Below are positions 41,248-54,954 of a stretch of DNA of 64,000 bases, one piece after another (positions within the stretch are counted from its first letter, which is position 1; each line of letters starts with the position of its first letter). The notes beneath the pieces are model-generated. The model was not told where the DNA came from. It saw only the letters and a list, made by a program, of their open reading frames with translations, and searched no databases. Source of the stretch: Chthoniobacterales bacterium. GTDB taxonomy: Bacteria; Verrucomicrobiota; Verrucomicrobiia; Chthoniobacterales; UBA10450. The stretch spans positions 1-64,000 of the forward strand of contig DATENU010000020.1 in NCBI GenBank assembly GCA_035274845.1. The letters run 5' to 3'. A program made the position numbers and the translations under genes.

Positions 41248-43119
41248 ATGAGAACATTTGGTATTAAATCAGACATGTTGGTGATTGTCCGCCGCTCGCT
41301 CGCCTCTTGTTTCTGCGGCGCGATCCTCCCGCTTATCGCCTTCAGCCAGGTTCCTGGGCAGGTTGCAGACGAGCTCGATGCAGAGGCGCCTGTGCTGGAG
41401 CCGTCCAATCCTGCTGCGGTCCCGGCGCCAAATAGTAACGCCCGGCGTGGGCGCATCGTGGATCATGCTGGGAATGTCCTTTTTCGTTCATTTGAAGGTT
41501 TCGGCGACGGCACGCCCGAACCAGTTTGGCCAATGGCGCCCGCGGCCTTTGCTTTCGTTCCAGGCCACTACTACAGCTCGAACGAGTCTTCCCGAGTCAT
41601 TACTGAATATGATTCAGTCGGAACTGTCGTGGGTTCATACACGGTCCCATCTGCCTGGGGCGAAGAGGTGAAAGGACTGGCCTTCGGCGCAGACGGACGC
41701 CTTTATGCGACTTTGTCCCGGGGTCCTTCTGGCTTTGTCGTTCTTGCGTTGGAGAGCGACGGCAACGTAGCGGCGAGCTATGCAGGTTCGGTTTATGTCG
41801 CCGGTAATCTTTCCTATGGGAAAATTGCGATGGACAATCAATATCTCTACGTTTGCGGACAGAATAAGTTAACAAGATTTCTGCTAGGGGATCCGTCATC
41901 CGGGACGGCGATCTACACGGAAGAGCAAATCGTCGACGTGAAGCCGCTGCCAAATGGCCACCTGCTCGTTGCCTCGGCAATTTATGTCGATGAAATCACC
42001 ACCAACGGCGCATTCGTGAGGCGTATTCAACTCACCGGCACCGGCAATTTTTTCTACGACATTCGCGGGGTCGAATACAACCCGGCAACGAACATCCTTT
42101 TTGTGACCCATCTCGGATACACTGGATTTTCTGACAGAATCATGCGGGTCAATGCGACAACTGGCGCTTTGCTGAATAGTGTGATCTTTAGCTATGCGGA
42201 TGATCTGTTTCTGGATTCATCCGGGCAACTTCTGGTCGGAAGTCGTATTTATGCGCCGACTTTTTTTTCGCAGGACTTGACACGAGGAAGCAGTCTTCAC
42301 GGCGGGCAGCAATTTTTTGTGACGCAATATGCCCCGGTCCAAGCATTGAATATCTCGACCCGGATGCGAGTGGAAACCGATAACAACGTGCTTATTGGAG
42401 GCTTTATCGTGGCCGGCACTGCATCCAAGAAGGTGGCCTTGCGGGGGATTGGCCCTTCCCTGTCTCAATTCGGCGTGCCAGACCCACTAGCTGATCCCGT
42501 CCTCGATTTGCGGGACAGCACTGGCGCCATGGTGCAACAAAATGACAATTGGCAGGACGATGCCTCGCAAGCGGCTCAACTAACCACTCTGGGTCTCGCC
42601 CTGCAAAATCCAAATGAGTCGGGCATCGTCGCTTCCGTGTCGCCTGCCGCTTATACCGCCATCCTCGGAGGCAAAAACGGAGGAACTGGAGTCGGGCTGG
42701 TGGAAATTTACGATACTCAGTCCGGCAGCGGATCAAGGCTGGCCAATATCAGTACGCGCGGCTTTGTCCGCACCGGCAGCAATGTCATGATCGGCGGGTT
42801 CATTCTTGGCGGTGCCAATATTACTCATGTGGTTATCCGCGGGATTGGACCGTCGCTCACTCAGTTTGGTTTAGATCCCGTCCTGGCTGATCCAACAATT
42901 GAACTGCGCGACAGTAATGGATCCCTCCTAGTTTCAAACGACAACTGGCAGGACGACGCTGTTTCGGCCTCGCAGTTGATCGCCCTTAATCTTGCACCCA
43001 CCAACGCAGCCGAGTCCGGCATCTACGCCGCGTTATGGCCGGGAGGTTTTACGGCTATCTTGGGCGGCAAGAACGGCGGTACTGGGATCGGTCTCGTCGA
43101 GATTTATGATGTCCGTTAA
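41248..43119 (+). CDS. Secreted protein with two tandem RGIGPSL/NDNWQDD modules
   Basis: 623 residues. A signal-like segment (SLASCFCGAILPLIAFSQ) precedes a ~300-residue region with repeated short beta-strand units (GLAFGADGRLYATLSRGPSG, LFLDSSGQLLVGS) that look like an NHL or beta-propeller fold. Two ~125-residue modules follow, about 366-490 and 500-623. Each has NISTR, IGGFI, RGIGPSL, DP-LADP, NDNWQDD, ESGI and ILGGKNGGTG-GLVEIYD. The modules are familiar from verrucomicrobial secreted proteins and may act as sorting or surface-attachment units; this is inference. It lies directly upstream of the Rhs gene. Confidence 0.75.
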   Translation: MRTFGIKSDMLVIVRRSLASCFCGAILPLIAFSQVPGQVADELDAEAPVLEPSNPAAVPAPNSNARRGRIVDHAGNVLFRSFEGFGDGTPEPVWPMAPAAFAFVPGHYYSSNESSRVITEYDSVGTVVGSYTVPSAWGEEVKGLAFGADGRLYATLSRGPSGFVVLALESDGNVAASYAGSVYVAGNLSYGKIAMDNQYLYVCGQNKLTRFLLGDPSSGTAIYTEEQIVDVKPLPNGHLLVASAIYVDEITTNGAFVRRIQLTGTGNFFYDIRGVEYNPATNILFVTHLGYTGFSDRIMRVNATTGALLNSVIFSYADDLFLDSSGQLLVGSRIYAPTFFSQDLTRGSSLHGGQQFFVTQYAPVQALNISTRMRVETDNNVLIGGFIVAGTASKKVALRGIGPSLSQFGVPDPLADPVLDLRDSTGAMVQQNDNWQDDASQAAQLTTLGLALQNPNESGIVASVSPAAYTAILGGKNGGTGVGLVEIYDTQSGSGSRLANISTRGFVRTGSNVMIGGFILGGANITHVVIRGIGPSLTQFGLDPVLADPTIELRDSNGSLLVSNDNWQDDAVSASQLIALNLAPTNAAESGIYAALWPGGFTAILGGKNGGTGIGLVEIYDVR

Positions 43120-43416: not shown

Positions 43417-46400
43417 ATGAAAACCCCATTCGTTTACCGACTCGCCCTTTCCCTTTCTGCCGTAAGTTTTATCACCTTCATAGGCATTTTGCGCGCCGAT
43501 GAGCCTGATTACGGTAACCCGACCGGCGCCTCCGGGCAGTTTAACGGCTCCGTCCAGACCGGTTGTAATTACGATCCGCTGACTGGAAATGCCCGCCGTT
43601 CTCTGGTGGATATCTCCGTTACGGGTGCGGTGACGCCGCTCGCCTTCATTCGCACGATGAACAGCCGGACCAACCTCGGTCCAGCCACCAGCGCGCTCTA
43701 CTATCCATTCGGAAAAGGAGGCGCCTGGCGTCACAACTACCAATGGGAAGTCACTAGCCCCGCGACGCAAGTCATCGGGGATGATCCCTGCTACGTTATG
43801 CCGCCATCCAGCTACACCGTGACATATCCCGACGGCAGAAAAGTGACGTTTCACGCGGATGGATCGAGCGCGACGACGGGTATTGGCGATCGTATGAGCG
43901 GCCTGGAATTTCCCGAGGCGGATGTCGTTACGTGTTCTCTTATTCTGTCCGATGGTAGTCGGATTAAGTTTAACGTCACCACGCACAACTCTCCTCCGGC
44001 CCCACTCTGCATTCCTGTTGGAAATACTATCTATCATACGGGTTACACTTACGCCGTCACCGGGATCATTAACCCCTACGGCCAGGAAACCACGATTGCG
44101 TGGAATAACGGCAAGATCGACACCATCACCGAGCCGGCCGGCCGAAGCCTCAAACTATATTACAACTCTGATAGTACGATCGACCGGGTGGAAGAATGGG
44201 CCCGCAGCCTCCCGACTGTAATTGTGGGAAGAACCGTGCAGTACCACTATTCCAGCTTCAACGACGGCACAACCGTCCTGGACAATGTGGTCTATTTCGG
44301 TGATTCGTCGCTCACCGCCAAATATACCTATCAGGCCAGCAATGAGATCTTCGCGAATCCTCCCAAGCCGCCCCTTATAAGAAGTTGTGACGATCCAATA
44401 TATTCCGGGGCGATGAACCGGATCGTGTACGATTTCGCCAGCGATCGCCCCCATGGGTTCATCGAGAGCGAGCGCTACTTCGATGGAAACTATCCGGTAA
44501 ACCCCGGCCCCAAAGTCTCCAGCCTCGCAATCGATCCCGCGAATTCGAACAAAAGAATCGAAACTCGCGGCGATGGGCCCTCGCGCACCTTCACCTACCA
44601 GGGTGGGCTCCTGAAGAGCTGGACTGATTTCAAGGCGACTCCGAACACGAATACGTTTTCGCAAGAGCACTTCACAAGCGGAGCTACTGGTTTTATCCGT
44701 TACGTCAAGGATGCGCGGCAGAATCAAACCGACTTCGTCCGCGATTCAGTTACAGGGCATATGACCGAGGTGACATTTCCTTTGACACCCTCGGATGATA
44801 ACGCGAACGGCAGCCCGCCAGTCCCGAAAAAACAGATAATCGAATACGACTCGAATCCCGGTGGGTATTATGTGATGAGCACGACTAATGAACGCGAAAA
44901 GCAGACCTTTTACAGGCGTGACACGTCCAGCCGGCGGGTTTCCGACATTGATTACCCTGACGGCGGACACGAAGGATTTCAGTATAACGGCTTCGGGCAG
45001 GTAACGAGATATGAACGGAAGAATGGATACTTCGAGCACGTGAGATACGATCCTCGCGGCTTGCTAGAACATCGTTCAGCTCCGACGGCGAACGGGACGA
45101 TGGAGCTTACGGTGGGTGCCCCACAGACAACACTAACCTACTATCCGTTGGGTGATCCATGGCAAGATCGACTCAAATCCGTCACCGATTTGCGACAAAA
45201 GACAACTATCTACGAATACGAGAGGTCAAATGGCACGGCGATTGCCGGGCGGGGCTTAATTTCGAAAATCATACACCCAGACAACAGTTACGTTTCGTTT
45301 GGCTACGACTCCCGGGGTAATAAGCTCTGGCAGGAAAACGAGTTGCGGCAGAGGACCAGTTTTTCCTACGACGCCTACAATCGTCTTATTACCGTTACGC
45401 TTCCTTTGCCAAACAATCGATCTGGAGTCATGAGTTATGAATACGACCCGAGCGCGAATGTTCATGTCCCCACTTCGCCCAGTTATCGCCACACGTCGTC
45501 GGCAGTTAGTAAGATAACGAGTGCTGAAGGAATTATGACCACGCACCGCTACGACGAAAATTTCCGGCGGATTGAAACAACTGAAGGGGCAGGAAGCAGC
45601 GACGCCGCCACTACGCATTACGATTTTGATCCAGTGGGCAATCTAGAGTTTGTAACCGATCCTCGGACCTACCAAACACACCTTGAGTACGATCAGCGTA
45701 ATCGCCGGAAAAAAGTCACCAGCCCAGAAGTAACAACTGAATCTGGTCCTGCCCGGTATATCACAGAATGGTTTTACGATCCCGTTGGCAATGTGCGCGA
45801 TATCCTACAGGCGGACCAAACTAAAATTCATCGTGAGTACGACGCAATGAATCGCCTTTGGACGCATGACTTGATCAGTCAGGACGGACAACGCCATCGC
45901 ATCTCAACCTTCCAATATTTTCCGTCAGGTCGAGTTTGGAAAGTAAAAGATCCCAAAGATCAGACCACTGAATTCGGCTACGATGGACGCGACTTGAAAT
46001 CGTTAATGAAATATCCCAATGGTGCGATTTTGCAAGGTTGGGAGTATGACGGCAACGAAAACATGACAAAGCGGCCGACTATCGGCTTGCCGACACAGAC
46101 ATTCACTTACGACGATCGAAACCGATTGGAGCATATGCGATGGAGCAATGGCGTTGATTTTAGCGACTTCGGCTATAACGACGCGAGCCAATTGACATGG
46201 GCGGTCAATCCGAACTCAACGATTACTCGGGACTACGACCAGAGGTCGGGACGCATGAACTGGGAACGACAAGTTCTTGCTGCCACCTCGAATCCCGCCG
46301 CGATCACAATTGCTCCGATAGCTATCGCTTCTCGAAAAGCCCACGGAGATGCTGGCGCTTTCGACATTGCTCTGCCTCTAACCGGCGATCCCGGAATCGA

Positions 46401-48663
46401 GTGTCGCAATGGCCCGGCGTACACGATAGTTCTAACTTTTGCGGAGTCTGTAACGGTAGGTGGCGCCTCAGTCAATTCAGGAATTGGTTCGGTGGCGAAC
46501 ACGTCGGCGAATGGGAATACTGTAACCGTTAATCTGACGGATGTCAGCAACGCCCAAGTGTTAACTGTGAAGGTTTTTGGACTATCCAATGGCACGACAA
46601 CGGGAGAATTGATCGTTCCAATGCATATTTTAACCGGCGACATCACCGGGGACGGCGCGATCAACAAAGATGATGTTTTGCAAGTAGAGGAACAGGAGAA
46701 TCAGCATATTGAGTCTAGCAATTTCCGATCGGACGTAAATACTGACGGGGTCATAAACGGCGACGATGTGAACGACGTAAGCGAAACCTCCGGTGAGGAC
46801 GAGCAAGCTGTTGCAGCGGCGGGCCCGCAGGCCACGGTGGAATATAGATATGACGATGATGGAAGGCCCAAGAACCTCTCCGTCTTGCCTATTTACTCGT
46901 ATGATTACACATACGACGGACTTGGACGTCTTGAATGGATTACGGAACCAAACGTTACTCCTGGCAATGAAGGAAGCTACAAATATTCCTACGATCCCGC
47001 CTCCAACGTGACCGCCCGTGTGAATTACACTAATGGCACAACGCTTTCCTTTGCGCCGGACGAACTGAACCGGCCTACCCAAGAAGCCATCCTGTCAGGG
47101 AACGACACCTTGTCACATCTTCACCACGGGTACGATTCGATGGGACGACTCAGTTACACATACCGCGAGGAGGAACCGGGACTGGTCGACACCTTTGTCT
47201 ACGATTTCACGGGCGAGCTAACCCTCCCCCAATATGGCTTGCATGTAAATGAGCATGGCGAAATTGAAAGCCCACAGACTGTCCCAACCTTTGTTTATGA
47301 CTTTGCGGGAAATCGCTTATCGGAGCAGGGCGCGCCGTACGTGCTGAACCCACAGCCACTCAACCAGTATATTCAAACCCCAGGCGGCGCCGTGAGTAAC
47401 GGGCCGCAACACGAGATCATTTCCTACGATAACGCGGGCTACGCGTATCGTGGCGACACGCGCCTCGCGGTAGTAGCGGCACCAGTGTCAGCCGGAGGAG
47501 ACCTCTACCAGCTCGGCTACGACGCGTTAGGCCGCACTGTTAAGCGAAAGATGAACCAAGGCCCGAACCAGGACACGAAGTATTTTATCTATGATGGTGC
47601 CCGGTCGATCATTGAATATGACGGCGCCGGAATTGTAAGGGGACGCTCGCTATATGGATTGGGGCTGGATGAGATTATCGCGCGTGATAACAACGGTCAG
47701 CCGCAGTTCCCGATACAGGATCGACTCGGCAGCACCATCGCGGTAACGGGAGCGAACGGACGGCTGTTGGAGAAATATTGGTACGAGGCCTTTGGCACGC
47801 CTCATTTCATTAGCTTTGATAAAGAGGGGAATCCGTTCGACGTCGCGGCAACACACATTAACAACAATATTCTTTTCGCAGGACGCGAATGGGTGTCTCG
47901 CTTCGGGTTCTATGAAAATCGCGCTCGGGCCTATCATCCCGGTTTGGGACGCTTCATGAGCGAGGATCCGTCGGGTTTCGACGGCGGCGACACAAACCTG
48001 TATCGCTATTGCGGGAATGATCCAGTGAACTTTTATGACGATAGCGGGCTCCAGCCGATTCCCGCTGGCCCCGTTGGCCCGGCGCCCCTCCTCTTTCCCG
48101 GGCGTGGGCCCGTTACGAATTGGCCTAATACCCGCCCACAGTTAGACCAAAACGGGATACGAAACACCATGCAGCCAGACGGCTCAATGATATACTACAA
48201 TGCCGCGTTGGTAGAGACCATCCTTCGGAATTTGGGGATAGAACTCAGAGAGGGCCTGGAATTCTTCGGTCCAAAGTACAAGTACAGAGGTGATGTGAAC
48301 GCCGGCGGGCCAAATGTGAATATGAGTTTTCTAACTCGGCTTAGCTCTGTAGCACCAATGCACACAGTTCCCTCCTTGGAGGTAGGAATCGCGGAGGCGA
48401 TTAGTACGGTAAGTGCCTATGCACTAGACCGCGGGCCGGGAATCGGGGAAATTGCTGTGAACGGGCGTGTCATACTCCGCTGGCATTTGGGAGATTCTTT
48501 TGCCTTCCGTGGAACTTTATACTTCCACGGTATTCCAATTAGGGGGCTGGGTAGCGCTCTGATTTCCACCGGCGGCGGCGGCTGGGAAGAAATCAATCCG
48601 GGCTGGGCCTCCTTTCCAGGCCCTGAGGCGGGCGAAGGATTTCACCCACCCGCTGAACCATGA
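43417..48663 (+). CDS. Secreted Rhs/YD-repeat protein with inserted dockerin-type module
   Basis: 1748 residues with an N-terminal signal peptide (LALSLSAVSFITFIGILRAD). Many YD repeats follow (YDSRGNKLW, YDDRNRLEHMRW, YDGLGRLEW), forming an Rhs cocoon. At about residues 960-1138 the repeats are interrupted by a beta-sandwich-like domain and a dockerin type I-like pair of calcium loops (GDITGDGAINKDDVLQV, SDVNTDGVINGDDVNDV); the YD repeats then resume. The core-ending motif is GLGRFMSEDPSGFDGGDTNL then YRYCGNDPVNF (about 1510-1545). The last ~200 residues are unlike the core and would be the variable toxin tip; no known toxin motif is recognised. Two small membrane proteins downstream could be immunity factors. 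Confidence 0.85.
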   Translation: MKTPFVYRLALSLSAVSFITFIGILRADEPDYGNPTGASGQFNGSVQTGCNYDPLTGNARRSLVDISVTGAVTPLAFIRTMNSRTNLGPATSALYYPFGKGGAWRHNYQWEVTSPATQVIGDDPCYVMPPSSYTVTYPDGRKVTFHADGSSATTGIGDRMSGLEFPEADVVTCSLILSDGSRIKFNVTTHNSPPAPLCIPVGNTIYHTGYTYAVTGIINPYGQETTIAWNNGKIDTITEPAGRSLKLYYNSDSTIDRVEEWARSLPTVIVGRTVQYHYSSFNDGTTVLDNVVYFGDSSLTAKYTYQASNEIFANPPKPPLIRSCDDPIYSGAMNRIVYDFASDRPHGFIESERYFDGNYPVNPGPKVSSLAIDPANSNKRIETRGDGPSRTFTYQGGLLKSWTDFKATPNTNTFSQEHFTSGATGFIRYVKDARQNQTDFVRDSVTGHMTEVTFPLTPSDDNANGSPPVPKKQIIEYDSNPGGYYVMSTTNEREKQTFYRRDTSSRRVSDIDYPDGGHEGFQYNGFGQVTRYERKNGYFEHVRYDPRGLLEHRSAPTANGTMELTVGAPQTTLTYYPLGDPWQDRLKSVTDLRQKTTIYEYERSNGTAIAGRGLISKIIHPDNSYVSFGYDSRGNKLWQENELRQRTSFSYDAYNRLITVTLPLPNNRSGVMSYEYDPSANVHVPTSPSYRHTSSAVSKITSAEGIMTTHRYDENFRRIETTEGAGSSDAATTHYDFDPVGNLEFVTDPRTYQTHLEYDQRNRRKKVTSPEVTTESGPARYITEWFYDPVGNVRDILQADQTKIHREYDAMNRLWTHDLISQDGQRHRISTFQYFPSGRVWKVKDPKDQTTEFGYDGRDLKSLMKYPNGAILQGWEYDGNENMTKRPTIGLPTQTFTYDDRNRLEHMRWSNGVDFSDFGYNDASQLTWAVNPNSTITRDYDQRSGRMNWERQVLAATSNPAAITIAPIAIASRKAHGDAGAFDIALPLTGDPGIECRNGPAYTIVLTFAESVTVGGASVNSGIGSVANTSANGNTVTVNLTDVSNAQVLTVKVFGLSNGTTTGELIVPMHILTGDITGDGAINKDDVLQVEEQENQHIESSNFRSDVNTDGVINGDDVNDVSETSGEDEQAVAAAGPQATVEYRYDDDGRPKNLSVLPIYSYDYTYDGLGRLEWITEPNVTPGNEGSYKYSYDPASNVTARVNYTNGTTLSFAPDELNRPTQEAILSGNDTLSHLHHGYDSMGRLSYTYREEEPGLVDTFVYDFTGELTLPQYGLHVNEHGEIESPQTVPTFVYDFAGNRLSEQGAPYVLNPQPLNQYIQTPGGAVSNGPQHEIISYDNAGYAYRGDTRLAVVAAPVSAGGDLYQLGYDALGRTVKRKMNQGPNQDTKYFIYDGARSIIEYDGAGIVRGRSLYGLGLDEIIARDNNGQPQFPIQDRLGSTIAVTGANGRLLEKYWYEAFGTPHFISFDKEGNPFDVAATHINNNILFAGREWVSRFGFYENRARAYHPGLGRFMSEDPSGFDGGDTNLYRYCGNDPVNFYDDSGLQPIPAGPVGPAPLLFPGRGPVTNWPNTRPQLDQNGIRNTMQPDGSMIYYNAALVETILRNLGIELREGLEFFGPKYKYRGDVNAGGPNVNMSFLTRLSSVAPMHTVPSLEVGIAEAISTVSAYALDRGPGIGEIAVNGRVILRWHLGDSFAFRGTLYFHGIPIRGLGSALISTGGGGWEEINPGWASFPGPEAGEGFHPPAEP

Positions 48664-48790
48664 GGCAGGAATAACGTCGGTCAGCGAACCTTCATTTTGC
48701 ATTGGACGCGTAAGGTCGATCTTTCTAGCTACAGATCCCGTCGAGTTCGCAGGATTGCATGGTCGGTTGAGCAACCGTTGCGGTCTGCAG

Positions 48791-49426
48791 ATGAGTATGG
48801 CTGACAAAATGCAAGGAAAAGGGCCTGACCCCACCGACTCCCCCGTGGATTGGCGACTGTCCAATGGCGCTCCACTTAATGCGTCGCCAGACGACCGTGT
48901 AGAAAGTATCGCCAGTGGCAGCTCTTGGCTTAAGAGATTCGTTCCACGAAGCGAATCAAGATTTGTTTTTCTATTCGCGATGTATTGCTATGCGGTCGCC
49001 CTGGGGGGTATCGCGAGTCAATTGATTGCGCTTGGCGGTCTTTGGGAGATTCGCGTCGATCCGCAAAATGATGTTGCGCACTATGTGCGGCCGGGCTTCG
49101 ATGGCCGCCCGCTACTCGAAGTTTTGCTTCTTGCTCCGGTTATCGAATCACTCATAATGATCGGCATTATCGAGCTGGTGCGCCGGTTTGGATTCAAGGT
49201 GTGTATCCAAGTGGCTGCTTCTGTCGGCGTGAGTTGTTTAATGCACGGCAGACTCTATTGGTTTTCGGCGATCGCGGTTGCCCCCGGCCTGTTCATAATC
49301 GCAGCGACTTATGCTTACTGCCGGCACATCTCATTTTGGACGGGTCTCTGGATGATCATACTATTACATTTTGCCCTCAACTTCCTCCCCGGTTTATCTC
49401 TAATTATCGAACGCGTCCTTAGCTAA
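48791..49426 (+). CDS. Multi-pass membrane protein, CPBP-like
   Basis: 211 residues from ATG 48791 (upstream TTG 48755 also open). After a polar ~55-residue start there are five or six hydrophobic segments. LLLAPVIESLIMIGIIELVRR, SCLMHGRLYWF and LLHFALNFLPG resemble the E-E..R, F..H and H..N motifs of CPBP (Abi) intramembrane proteases, but the first Glu pair is degenerate (IES). It begins 127 bases after the Rhs stop in the same direction, so an immunity or processing role for the Rhs product is possible but unproven. Confidence 0.6.
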   Translation: MSMADKMQGKGPDPTDSPVDWRLSNGAPLNASPDDRVESIASGSSWLKRFVPRSESRFVFLFAMYCYAVALGGIASQLIALGGLWEIRVDPQNDVAHYVRPGFDGRPLLEVLLLAPVIESLIMIGIIELVRRFGFKVCIQVAASVGVSCLMHGRLYWFSAIAVAPGLFIIAATYAYCRHISFWTGLWMIILLHFALNFLPGLSLIIERVLS

Positions 49427-50814: not shown

Positions 50815-53800
50815 TTGCCACTGTCAGAGAGCCGAAGCACGTTGGTCGAAAGCATTTGGGATTTTGCTTTCGGATACGACTACTTTGTGTGCCACAGCTG
50901 GAAAGACTCGCACGCGTACGCTGAAGCGATAGTACGCGGATTGGAGCCAGACTTGCGGTGCTTTATCGACTCGCGGGATTTCGAAAAAGGTGCCTCATGG
51001 ACAATCCAAGGAGCGCAAGCATTACGACGCAGCACGATGCTAATTGTCGTGCTGAGCCCAGGCGCTTTATCTTCGGAACCGGTTTATGACGAAGTCACCT
51101 ATTTTGTAGCGAGGAGGCCTCATAGGCGAGTTGTCACGATTAATATAAACGAGACCTATTCCCAACTGCCGAGCGAGCACCGCTTGTACCGGTTGCTGTT
51201 CGCCGAGAGATTGCGGATTCCTGAGATTGTTGCGGGTCCCCTTGAGACTCCGTCTGAGTCGGTTCTGCTTGAACTAAAGCGGAACTTCAGATTCGTCCAT
51301 CAAAATACGAAAAGATTGCGAATCCTAAAAGTAACGATTGCACTTTTGCTGGGGCTGAGCCTCTGCGCATTGTTCGCGGCAGGATATTCCCAAAAGCAGC
51401 GGAACCTGGCGCTTCTTGAACGCAATATCGCTCGCGTGGGCGAGGGCAGATTTTATCTTGAGCGGGCTAAACAATCCATCAGCGGTGGAGTTGGCACTTA
51501 TCCATTGCTGCCGATTTATGCGTCTCGTGCCGTTGGTTTTCCAACAACGGGTCCTGTTGGCGAACGGAGCAAGCGCTTTCCCCAGCTTCTAAGTCCGGAT
51601 GCCACCCCAGACGAATATCAAGACGCTTTGCGTTTGGCCGGTTGGAACCTGGCCGCGCCGGTTCTCATCTGGTCGAGTCCGCTTGTCCGACAGCACGCGA
51701 ATTCCATTACGCTGCTTCAGTCGTTGCCCGGATCGCGCCTGTTCTCTCTGGATGCCTCCGGATATTCGCGTATTTGGAACTTGAAGACAAACACGATGGA
51801 AGGAGCCCGTCGGTTCGAGGGTGACGTCAGCCATGCCTGCGCAAGCTTGGATGAGAAGGTTTGGGCTGTCTGCAGCCACGATGGACAAATTGCCATTTTC
51901 AATGCGGATACTTGGTTTCCCATTCAGTCGTTAGCGGGCGGACTACGAGATATGTATTTGTCGCTGGACGAGCACGGGCGACGGTTAAGCATAACCGGAA
52001 AAGACACGGTGGAAATTTGGGAGAAGAGCACTGGGAATCGGCTTCAGATCATTAGACTACCTCAAACGAATCTTCCACAGTCCGGCCTGCTTAGTCCCAC
52101 GGGGGATTATGTTGCCGTAAAGTCGGACGGAAAAGTGACCGTTTACGATGTCGCAACAGGAAAAATCTTTCCTCACCTACCGTCCATTGCCGATACTGGC
52201 GTAAAGGCTTTTAGTTGGTGTGGCCGGACAGAGCGCCTGTTTCTTGTAGGAAATGACGGTAGCTGCTATATAACTGACATACGCGGAGCGACCGAGCGCA
52301 TCGCACCATCCGAACCGTGGGGCGATGGTTTCAGTTGTTTTGTCAGCCCGTCCGGGCGCTTCGCCGTTTCACGGCCAACTCCCGATTCTCGTTTAGGGAA
52401 AGCGATGCTTTGGGATCTGCCTGCGAAGAAATGTCTTGGTCCTTTGCAGCGCTTTCCTGGGAGAGGTCCGGTCTCGTCGTTTTGGTTCTCAAAGGACGAT
52501 CAATTGCTTTACGGTGGATCCACCTTTGGAACCATTACTGCCTGGCAGCTGCCGTCGGGCCGCTTGGACGCCCGATATGCGCACGGTCACGGCGGTCCTG
52601 TGTACGATGTGGCATTTTCCCCAGATGGGAGCATTTTCGCGAGCGCTGGCACGGATGGAACGATCGAAGTGTGGGATTCGGCAAATGGCTCTATCAAGCA
52701 GTCCGCCGCGTCTCCCCATTGGAATAGCGAGTACCGCCGGGTTACATTCTTGGGCAAGAGCGGCGTGTTGCTGGCACTGGACCGCGCCGGGCTGCTGGTG
52801 CGAATCCAGCTAGGGCACCCCGAGCCAATCCAGGAATCGTTTCAATTGCGACCGGGTCAGGCATTCGCCATGGCCGTCAATCCCGACACTGCGGAGGTCG
52901 CCGTAGGATTCACTTGCGGCCGGATCGAAATTCGCAAGCTTGCTTCGCTGCACGAAGTTGATCGGCAATACGAAATTGGAGCCCGCAACGATCCGGAATT
53001 TCGCGCTCTGGATGCCAAAATAAACCTTCCCCAGACGATCACGGCCTTGAGCTTTAGTCCCGGCGGTCGCCGGCTTGCATGTGCCATATCCGCGGCGCGC
53101 GCGGGGACCGACCAGAAGGTTCTTCTTCTGGATCCGGATGAGCCCGACCATAAGATTTTGATTATCGATCCGGAAACTGGGCAAAAACTCTTTGGCTTTG
53201 AGGGCGACAAGGAGGCGGTCAATGCAATCGTCTTCAGCCCAGTCGGAGACACGGTAGCGAGTGGGGGACTGGATGGAAAGATTCGTTTTTACGGCTGCTC
53301 CCCCACGCCCAAGACTTACCCTACCAAAGAGGTAGACGGAACGCCGATTACCTCCTTGGCCTATAGTATCGACGGACACTTTTTTGCCGCCGGAACGAAA
53401 TCCGGGAAAATTCGTCTTTGGGACACGACAATCAATCAAGCCGTCGCCGATTTATTAGCTCACTCAGATGCGGTGAATCGGATTGAGTTTTCGCCTGACG
53501 GGTCGTACCTGCTATCCAGTTCAGACGACGGCACCGTCAAGGCCTGGGAGATTGCGAGTGACAACGTCACCTTTGGATCTCATGTCCGCGGTCTGCTCGC
53601 CGGAGACTCCCACCATCCCACCATCGCGATCACTATGCACAATGGCGGCACCATGATCAACGTGGTGGGGGAAGAGACAGGAGGCATCACCGGACGGCAA
53701 CTTAGTGCTGTCGGTTTAGCGAGTTCATGGGCATACAATGCACAAGCAGATCTGCTCGTACTGGGAGGGAACGATCTTCCTGGGGACGGTCAAAGTGTCG

Positions 53801-54954
53801 AGCCCGATGAAACCGCAGGACGTTGTGAACTTTGGCGAACGACAGACATGGAAAAGATTGCCACGTGGACGCCACGACACAGGTTGGTAAAAGCGGTCGC
53901 GATATCGCCGTCCGGGCGGCATGTTGCGACCGCGGGTTGGGAGGGCGTCCGCCTCTGGGATACAGCCAATTTGCAGAGGCCGATCTGGGAGACGTCAGAA
54001 GTGCTCTTCGTCGAAACGATCGCCTTCAGTCCCGATGGAAAGCGACTCATCTTTTCGTCGAGCGCTGGAAAGGCGCGTGGCGCCCTCTTCGGTCCCAAAG
54101 CCAAAGCAGATCCGCGCGGCAATTTGTTCCTGGCTGATGCTTCCAATGGTGAAATCTTGCGGGGCGAGCAAGTGCCGACTTACTCGATTTTAGCGCTAGC
54201 CATTAACCCGCGCGGGGATCAACTGGCCGTCGGGACGAACGGGGCCGGAGTATTTACCTATGACCTGAATGAATCCTCTTTTGGATCTCGCGTTCATCAC
54301 GAGCAGTCCGGTTCGGTCGATGCCGTCGCGTTCAACGAGGACGGAACATATCTCGGGAGCAGCTCAAATGAAATGGGGTTGATGTTATGGCCGTGCGGAG
54401 TGAAGTCAGGATTTGTCCGTCAATTCCTCATCAAGGGTTGCAGCTCGATTGCCTTCGGTGCGGATCGGAAGACTTTGTGGCTCAGTGCGGGAAGAGATAT
54501 TCGGAAAGTCGATCTTCGCCCGGCCGATTATCTCCAGTATTTCTACCCAAACCAAACTATCGACCATGAGCCATCCAAGGATTGGTTTCAACTTGCCGGC
54601 GGGGGTTTTAATCCTTTAGACAAAAACAATTTTCTCGATCGCAACCAAGAGTTTGGATTCGTGAACCTGCGCGGAAACACCCTTGGCGAACAATATCGGT
54701 CCGCGGACGGAGAGGAGCTCCGGAATAGACTGTTCTGGCGCTTCTATAATGCTCGAAACTGGCCGGCCGCGTGGGCCCATTGCGATCAGACGAATAGCGA
54801 ACAGCGTACAAGCATGTTGTTGGGACTTGCGGCAGAAAATTTTGTTCCGACTGCGCGAACATTGCTGCAAGGCATATCGATTGAACCAGTTTCGCAGGTT
54901 GAGATTGAAGCAAGCAAAGGTATCAAGACAATGGATAAGGATAAGATTCCTTAA
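50815..54954 (+). CDS. TIR-transmembrane-WD40 repeat protein
   Basis: 1379 residues from TTG 50815. A TIR domain lies at ~20-150 (YDYFVCHSWKDSHAYAEAIV, RCFIDSRDFEKGASW, MLIVVLSPGALSSEPVYDEV). One membrane helix follows at ~168-192 (VTIALLLGLSLCALFAAGY), then a basic helical segment. A long array of WD40 blades runs from ~280 to ~1290, including VYDVAFSPDGSIFASAGTDG and VNRIEFSPDGSYLLSSSDDG, enough for two propellers. A ~90-residue C-terminal part follows. The Glu of NADase-type TIR domains is not obvious in ASWTIQGAQAL. Likely a sensor-type protein: propellers outside or inside the membrane detect a partner and the TIR signals. A defence role is inference from domain types. Confidence 0.8.
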   Translation: MPLSESRSTLVESIWDFAFGYDYFVCHSWKDSHAYAEAIVRGLEPDLRCFIDSRDFEKGASWTIQGAQALRRSTMLIVVLSPGALSSEPVYDEVTYFVARRPHRRVVTININETYSQLPSEHRLYRLLFAERLRIPEIVAGPLETPSESVLLELKRNFRFVHQNTKRLRILKVTIALLLGLSLCALFAAGYSQKQRNLALLERNIARVGEGRFYLERAKQSISGGVGTYPLLPIYASRAVGFPTTGPVGERSKRFPQLLSPDATPDEYQDALRLAGWNLAAPVLIWSSPLVRQHANSITLLQSLPGSRLFSLDASGYSRIWNLKTNTMEGARRFEGDVSHACASLDEKVWAVCSHDGQIAIFNADTWFPIQSLAGGLRDMYLSLDEHGRRLSITGKDTVEIWEKSTGNRLQIIRLPQTNLPQSGLLSPTGDYVAVKSDGKVTVYDVATGKIFPHLPSIADTGVKAFSWCGRTERLFLVGNDGSCYITDIRGATERIAPSEPWGDGFSCFVSPSGRFAVSRPTPDSRLGKAMLWDLPAKKCLGPLQRFPGRGPVSSFWFSKDDQLLYGGSTFGTITAWQLPSGRLDARYAHGHGGPVYDVAFSPDGSIFASAGTDGTIEVWDSANGSIKQSAASPHWNSEYRRVTFLGKSGVLLALDRAGLLVRIQLGHPEPIQESFQLRPGQAFAMAVNPDTAEVAVGFTCGRIEIRKLASLHEVDRQYEIGARNDPEFRALDAKINLPQTITALSFSPGGRRLACAISAARAGTDQKVLLLDPDEPDHKILIIDPETGQKLFGFEGDKEAVNAIVFSPVGDTVASGGLDGKIRFYGCSPTPKTYPTKEVDGTPITSLAYSIDGHFFAAGTKSGKIRLWDTTINQAVADLLAHSDAVNRIEFSPDGSYLLSSSDDGTVKAWEIASDNVTFGSHVRGLLAGDSHHPTIAITMHNGGTMINVVGEETGGITGRQLSAVGLASSWAYNAQADLLVLGGNDLPGDGQSVEPDETAGRCELWRTTDMEKIATWTPRHRLVKAVAISPSGRHVATAGWEGVRLWDTANLQRPIWETSEVLFVETIAFSPDGKRLIFSSSAGKARGALFGPKAKADPRGNLFLADASNGEILRGEQVPTYSILALAINPRGDQLAVGTNGAGVFTYDLNESSFGSRVHHEQSGSVDAVAFNEDGTYLGSSSNEMGLMLWPCGVKSGFVRQFLIKGCSSIAFGADRKTLWLSAGRDIRKVDLRPADYLQYFYPNQTIDHEPSKDWFQLAGGGFNPLDKNNFLDRNQEFGFVNLRGNTLGEQYRSADGEELRNRLFWRFYNARNWPAAWAHCDQTNSEQRTSMLLGLAAENFVPTARTLLQGISIEPVSQVEIEASKGIKTMDKDKIP

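What the first reader, a model, noticed from the sequence alone, without database searches (positions are those of the whole stretch)
43417..48663. Dockerin-type module inserted inside an Rhs cocoon
The YD-repeat shell is interrupted at about residues 960-1138 by a beta-sandwich-like domain plus two calcium-loop repeats of dockerin type, then YD repeats resume. A nested insertion would project from the shell and could tether the toxin capsule to a surface or partner. Such modules normally sit at the C-terminus of secreted proteins.
Basis: partly seen in the sequence, partly recalled or inferred. Interest (0 to 1): 0.62.

Follow-up and report, generated by a model that had tools for sequence, protein, structure and literature searches.

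The report
Calcium-binding module nested in an Rhs shell
A secreted soil-bacterium protein that should fold into a hollow shell carries, in the middle of its shell-forming sequence, an extra calcium-binding module that its relatives otherwise keep at the end of other proteins, probably as a sticky knob on the shell's outside.

Summary
One intact 1748-aa frame (43417-48663) has RHS repeats and an Rhs core, with a 181-residue insert at residues ~957-1137 (window 46285-46827): an Ig-like sandwich (model pLDDT 91) plus a dockerin-type pair with both calcium loops kept. In 38 aligned Rhs homologues of the same bacterial family the same place holds 0-19 residues; the insert lies between two consecutive shell strands. 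The module is common in Chthoniobacterales/Spartobacteria (38 of 213 order genomes), otherwise terminal: 135 of 137 other copies end within 60 residues of a stop, and none is in a protein with an Rhs core. Three other family Rhs shells carry different Ig-like modules at another point of the shell. Best reading: an outward-facing adhesion or receptor module, as in mosquito SGS1, whose published structure has Ig-like domains inserted in the Rhs sequence and decorating the exterior. The cellulosome reading fails: no cohesin in 83 of 83 family genomes. Partner, export route and cargo are unknown; the C-terminal tip matches nothing. Bacterial and dockerin-type it looks new; the principle is known.

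The parts
43417..48663 (+). Rhs/YD-repeat protein, 1748 aa, with a nested sandwich-dockerin module
   Evidence: ORF; RHS_repeat; Rhs_assc_core
43417..43497 (+). N-terminal hydrophobic segment, signal-peptide-like (residues 1-27)
   Evidence: read from the sequence; no signal-peptide predictor was run
43573..43851 (+). DUF6531-type N-terminal domain (residues 53-145)
   Evidence: PF20148 E 5.9e-6, over its cut-off
44464..46284 (+). YD-repeat shell, part before the insert (from about residue 350 to 956)
   Evidence: the N-terminal limit is approximate
46285..46827 (+). inserted module, residues 957-1137
   Evidence: 0-19 residues at this place in 38 of 38 family Rhs homologues
46318..46629 (+). 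Ig-like beta-sandwich of the module (about residues 968-1071)
   Evidence: model mdb03c31c95f7, pLDDT 91, strands 20-122; VIA-align best Z 7.4
46636..46770 (+). dockerin-type pair; calcium loops at residues 1075-1086 and 1106-1117
   Evidence: loop residues counted
46828..47847 (+). YD-repeat shell, part after the insert (from residue 1138)
   Evidence: strand resumes at residue 1138 in the model
47848..48051 (+). Rhs-associated core (residues 1478-1545)
   Evidence: TIGR03696 E 1.5e-19
48082..48660 (+). variable C-terminal tip (residues 1556-1748), function unknown
   Evidence: no match in 82 of 82 other family genomes, none in Pfam; best PDB E 0.28

Best explanation
The gene encodes an exported Rhs/YD-repeat shell protein whose shell carries an extra folded module in a turn between two consecutive beta-strands. 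The module, an Ig-like sandwich with a calcium-loaded dockerin-type pair, comes from the pool of C-terminal modules of its own bacterial order. It most likely folds on its own and stands on the outside of the shell as a calcium-stabilised adhesion or receptor module that holds the shell to a cell envelope, glycan or partner protein. Shown: one open frame, nested position, module identity, retained calcium-ligand positions, empty site in relatives, absence of a recognisable cohesin. Inferred: outward orientation, calcium binding, adhesion, export, and that the shell encloses a toxic tip.
For: Empty site in 16 of 16 chosen and 38 of 38 wider homologues, including the paralogue in the same genome. 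Homology on both sides of the insert in one frame. Module folds confidently alone (pLDDT 91, pTM 0.82). Dockerin and X-module+dockerin homology. Ligand-type residues at loop positions 1, 3, 5 and 12 of both loops. In the shell model the strand before the insert ends at residue 954 and the next begins at 1138 (local pLDDT about 70-80). Other family Rhs shells carry Ig-like modules (CHB_HEX_C_1, Fn3_assoc) behind P/T linkers. Published precedent: SGS1 (PMC9935623, passages).
Against: The shell model is poor overall (pLDDT 54.8, pTM 0.30), so orientation is not shown. No partner found: cohesin 0 of 83. The conserved terminal tail of the module family is absent in the window copy, so whatever that tail does in its relatives is not done here. 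No other nested dockerin-Rhs protein was found, so there is no conservation of the nested state to show that it is selected.
Confidence: 0.62

Rival explanations
1. Passenger insertion: a module was spliced in frame into a tolerant turn by recombination and has no binding role; it only sits there as a calcium-stabilised knob.
For: Single case: 0 of 40 family Rhs proteins of at least 700 aa carry this module and 1 of 138 module copies is nested. The terminal tail is lost. Sister shells carry unrelated modules, so turns may simply tolerate inserts.
Against: Conserved sandwich, open frame over 1748 codons and ligand-type residues in both calcium loops despite about 50% identity to the nearest copy: the fold has been kept.
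Confidence: 0.2
2. The module packs inside the shell or plugs it, as the FN-plug does in teneurins, and regulates closure or release of the tip.
For: Inward modules exist: the teneurin plug lies inside the shell (PMC5851990 and PMC6425310, passages).
Against: The teneurin plug lies N-terminal to the shell, not in a turn between strands. In SGS1 the domains inserted in the Rhs sequence are outside. About 180 residues would compete with the cargo for room.
Confidence: 0.08
3. Cellulosome-like docking: the dockerin binds a cohesin scaffold and hangs the shell on it, as scaffoldins with Rhs repeats and dockerins in Clostridium alkalicellulosi may do.
For: Dockerin homology; Rhs repeats and dockerins occur in one chain in scaffoldins (PMC6780208 and PMC3413522, passages).
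Against: No cohesin PF00963 in 83 of 83 family genomes including its own, while the control rings. This is the only Dockerin_1 match in the genome.
Confidence: 0.04
4. Assembly join or chimera between an Rhs gene and a module-bearing gene.
For: No reads at hand; draft of 24 contigs; the module is unique in this genome.
Against: In frame at both joins, between two strands, same shell on both sides, no shift in G+C; no other module copy in the genome from which a chimera could be built; the flanks show only short imperfect repeats.
Confidence: 0.03

Closest known systems
Mosquito salivary protein SGS1 (PMC9935623; passages read)
   Same: Folded domains, two of them Ig-like sandwiches (CBM, lectin-CRD), are inserted in the sequence of an Rhs/YD shell and decorate its exterior.
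   Different: Animal protein, different modules (no dockerin), other points of the shell, far larger; SGS4 is only a weak PDB match in the core.
Tc toxin TcB (YenB) with its beta-propeller (PMC5851990; figure legend passage)
   Same: A whole domain is inserted in the YD-repeat domain.
   Different: Propeller that docks to TcA; no Ig-like or dockerin module; a Tc component with known partners.
Scaffoldins ScaO/ScaP of Clostridium alkalicellulosi and Acetivibrio cellulolyticus (PMC6780208, PMC3413522; passages)
   Same: Rhs repeats and dockerin in one secreted chain; ScaP2 has an X-dockerin dyad.
   Different: They also have cohesins and peptidases; the passages read do not describe nesting; here no cohesin exists in the family.
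Terminal sandwich-dockerin module of Chthoniobacterales (family defined here)
   Same: Same module: window copy matches the profile at E 1e-62 and shares up to 51% identity.
   Different: 135 of 137 others end within 60 aa of the stop, typically with a short tail in -LP; the window copy has about 611 more residues and no such tail.
Bacterial teneurin-like proteins 9pt5/9ifo (PMC13018210; passages)
   Same: Closest solved shells by sequence (E 8e-14); secreted, variable C-termini.
   Different: Their added adhesion domains are N-terminal and the TIP domain sits between TTR and FN-plug, not in the YD ladder.

Membership tests
Rhs/YD-repeat proteins | RHS repeats | tested here: met
   PF05593 E 3.8e-21, 6 stretches
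Rhs/YD-repeat proteins | Rhs-associated core before a variable tip | tested here: met
   TIGR03696 E 1.5e-19 at 1478-1545; tip not found in 82 of 82 other family genomes
Rhs/YD-repeat proteins | closed hollow shell | tested here: inconclusive
   model of residues 350-1549: pLDDT 54.8, pTM 0.30; strand ladder on both sides of the insert only
Rhs/YD-repeat proteins | toxic C-terminal domain with adjacent immunity gene | tested here: inconclusive
   tip without match; next ORF 48755-49426 has no Pfam match
Rhs/YD-repeat proteins | self-cleavage by the core | not testable with these tools
   needs protein
Dockerin type I | two calcium loops with acidic or polar ligands at 1, 3, 5, 12 | tested here: met
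   window D-T-D-D and D-N-D-D; matching columns in 37 copies
Dockerin type I | Pfam Dockerin_1 over the cut-off | tested here: inconclusive
   24.1 bits, over the cut-off, in the genome search; 18.1 and 22.3 bits, below 22.9, in protein scans
Dockerin type I | sequence relation to solved dockerins | tested here: met
   profile A1 against PDB: 2ccl_B 1.1e-8, 2b59_B 1.7e-7
Dockerin type I | cohesin partner in the organism | tested here: not met
   PF00963 in 0 of 83 family genomes and 0 of 1 own; so it is a dockerin-type module, not filed as a cellulosomal dockerin
Chthoniobacterales terminal sandwich-dockerin module | whole-module profile match | tested here: met
   E 1.0e-62; the window copy was one of the 37 rows of that profile, single-sequence searches also connect them
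Chthoniobacterales terminal sandwich-dockerin module | position at the C-terminus with a short conserved tail | tested here: not met
   window copy is followed by the shell; 113 of 137 others have a tail of 10 aa or less
SGS1-like shells with inserted receptor domains | folded domain inserted in the YD sequence | tested here: met
SGS1-like shells with inserted receptor domains | inserted domain lies on the exterior | not testable with these tools
   no coordinates of a confident shell model

The most novel reading that the evidence does not exclude
Rhs shells of Chthoniobacterales are modular display platforms: turns of the shell accept interchangeable Ig-like adhesion modules drawn from the lineage's secreted proteins, and the window protein shows a calcium-dependent sandwich-dockerin used there to bind a partner that is not a cohesin.
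Probability: 0.35. Interest if true: 0.7.

Novelty: new variant of a known kind. Interest (0 to 1): 0.5.

Why it matters
How secreted Rhs shells that ride no needle machine find their target is largely open. If shell turns carry ready-made binding modules, the target specificity could be read from sequence and tested module by module. It would also give a bacterial counterpart to the inserted receptor domains of mosquito SGS proteins, and show a dockerin-type module at work without cohesins, outside its usual terminal place.

Tried and rejected
Cohesin partner: 0 of 83 genomes. Other nested copies: a query spanning the module end and the next repeats gave no match covering both parts among the matches listed for 83 family genomes, apart from the window itself; the list was cut. 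Foldseek of the module: 0 matches at E 0.001 or better; the VIA second look gave only common Ig-like arrangements, best Z 7.4, so no specific sandwich family is claimed. Shell model: low confidence; it was not searched against structures for that reason. Viral-contig search with the core alignment: nothing confirmed. Boundary repeats: only short imperfect ones, no target-site duplication claimed. Module scan of genome contigs with the single window protein: none confirmed; with a tighter alignment, 28 loci, the last two of them weak and outside the order. Papers: one search found 4 holding both 'Rhs' and 'dockerin' as whole words; I read passages of 2 of them, the other 2 only as listing. Searches showed no description of a dockerin nested in an Rhs shell in what I read (listings, and passages of PMC9935623, PMC13018210, PMC5851990, PMC6425310, PMC11461821, PMC11557425); that is not proof of absence. 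Rows dropped: I chose 16 of the homologues listed; I left out 2 of 40 (L208 very long, L216 cut by the region end); matches whose profile end was below position 150 of 165 were dropped and copies with the same last 70 residues merged; one search did not list all matches and I fetched contexts for a part of them only. One search's table was also cut.

Full report
Observation. The finding coincides with one open frame of 1748 codons (43417-48663). It starts with a hydrophobic, signal-peptide-like segment (read from the sequence, no predictor run), has a DUF6531-type domain, RHS repeats on both sides of the insert (and homology) and an Rhs core at 1478-1545, and ends in a 193-residue tip. Residues 957-1137 differ: a sandwich-like part followed by a dockerin-type pair.

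Is it really nested? The paralogue on another contig of the same genome matches residues 30-939 and then 1138-1550, with only a short gap between the two matches. Aligned with 16 chosen homologues, the insert region holds 2-9 residues in all 16, and in a wider alignment of 38 it holds 0-19 residues in all 38. In the low-confidence shell model the strand before the insert ends at residue 954 and the next one starts at 1138, locally at about 70-80 pLDDT. The insert therefore sits in a turn between two consecutive strands. Base composition does not change abruptly across it and the flanks hold only short imperfect repeats. A frameshifted neighbour is excluded; an assembly join is very unlikely, but reads were not available.

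What is the insert? The module folds with confidence when modelled with 41 relatives (pLDDT 91.0, pTM 0.82): eight strands, then three helices around the two loops. Foldseek gives no significant match, and the second look gives common Ig-like arrangements up to Z 7.4 over model residues 13-125. By sequence, the profile of 37 copies finds solved dockerins (2ccl 1.1e-8) and, over the last sandwich strands plus the dockerin, X-module+dockerin dyads of scaffoldins (2b59 1.7e-7). Positions 1, 3, 5 and 12 of both loops keep ligand-type residues (D, T, D, D and D, N, D, D). Calcium binding itself is inferred.

Where else does it occur? A profile search of the order finds the module in 38 of 213 genomes, a single-protein search of the phylum in 4 of 387 including its own, and of the family in 33 of 83 including its own; two family genomes have more than 20 copies. 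Named loci are Spartobacteria, Chthoniobacterales and Verrucomicrobiota MAGs. In the fetched contexts, of 137 distinct copies outside the window, 113 have a tail of 10 residues or fewer, 22 of 11-60, and 2 longer, both starting with Pro/Thr-rich sequence; 99 of 137 have LP or LS within the first ten tail residues; 0 of 137 lie in a protein with an Rhs core. Conversely 0 of 40 family Rhs proteins of at least 700 aa carry it. The window copy is thus the only nested one seen, and it lacks the terminal tail. In its own genome it is the only copy of the module and the only Dockerin_1 match.

Are other inserts known in these shells? Three further family Rhs proteins (L147, L149, L191) have P/T-rich linkers followed by CHB_HEX_C_1 or Fn3_assoc modules at positions equivalent to window residues about 1274-1324. 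Two of the three exceed the Pfam cut-off for CHB_HEX_C_1; L149 is just below the cut-off for Fn3_assoc. So family shells take folded Ig-like modules at more than one place, and each is rare. L147 ends in a weak Peptidase_M91 match (E 0.00043, below the cut-off), a hint that some tips are effectors.

Function. Cohesins are absent from 83 of 83 family genomes (the control genome rings), so cellulosome-type docking is not supported. The nearest mechanistic precedent is mosquito SGS1: four of its five exterior domains, among them two Ig-like ones, are formed by segments inserted in the Rhs/YD sequence (PMC9935623, passages). In YenB a propeller is inserted in the YD domain (PMC5851990, legend passage). 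By this precedent the window module should stand outside and act in binding. I rate nesting at about 0.95, outward position at about 0.75 and an adhesion role at about 0.5; the stated overall confidence is 0.62. The rivals are a functionless passenger, an internal plug, cohesin docking and an assembly chimera, in falling order.

Novelty. Domains inserted in Rhs shells are known; Rhs repeats and dockerins in one chain are known in scaffoldins (PMC6780208, PMC3413522, passages). A dockerin-type module nested in the shell of a cohesin-free bacterium was not described in anything I read. I file it as a new variant of a known kind.

Noticed in passing
window 50815-54954: 1379-aa protein with an N-terminal TIR domain (PF13676 E 9.3e-13) and many WD40 repeats; possibly a signalling or defence protein.
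   Followed up: no
window 41248-43119: 623-aa ORF upstream with a propeller-like front and two similar copies of a segment of roughly 110 residues at the C-terminus (seen by reading); no Pfam or NCBIfam match.
   Followed up: no
L147 res 870-1099; L149 res 1109-1314; L191 res about 1151-1270: Other family Rhs shells with P/T linkers plus CHB_HEX_C_1 or Fn3_assoc modules inserted near the equivalent of window residues 1274-1324.
   Followed up: partly
G000:C16 and C17 (L021, L023, L024): Short frames (338-528 aa) with an Rhs core near full-length Rhs genes, resembling displaced core-plus-tip cassettes.
   Followed up: no
L208 715-8493: 2593-aa frame with an Rhs core at 2253-2401 in the same genus.
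   Followed up: no
module family, e.g. L090, L093, L101: The terminal sandwich-dockerin module ends in a short conserved tail (often SGT-A/G-LP and stop); with up to 28 copies per genome it may be a secretion or anchoring signal.
   Followed up: partly
window 48755-49426: 223-aa membrane-like ORF just downstream of the Rhs gene, without Pfam match; reads like a membrane protease family by recall only.
   Followed up: no
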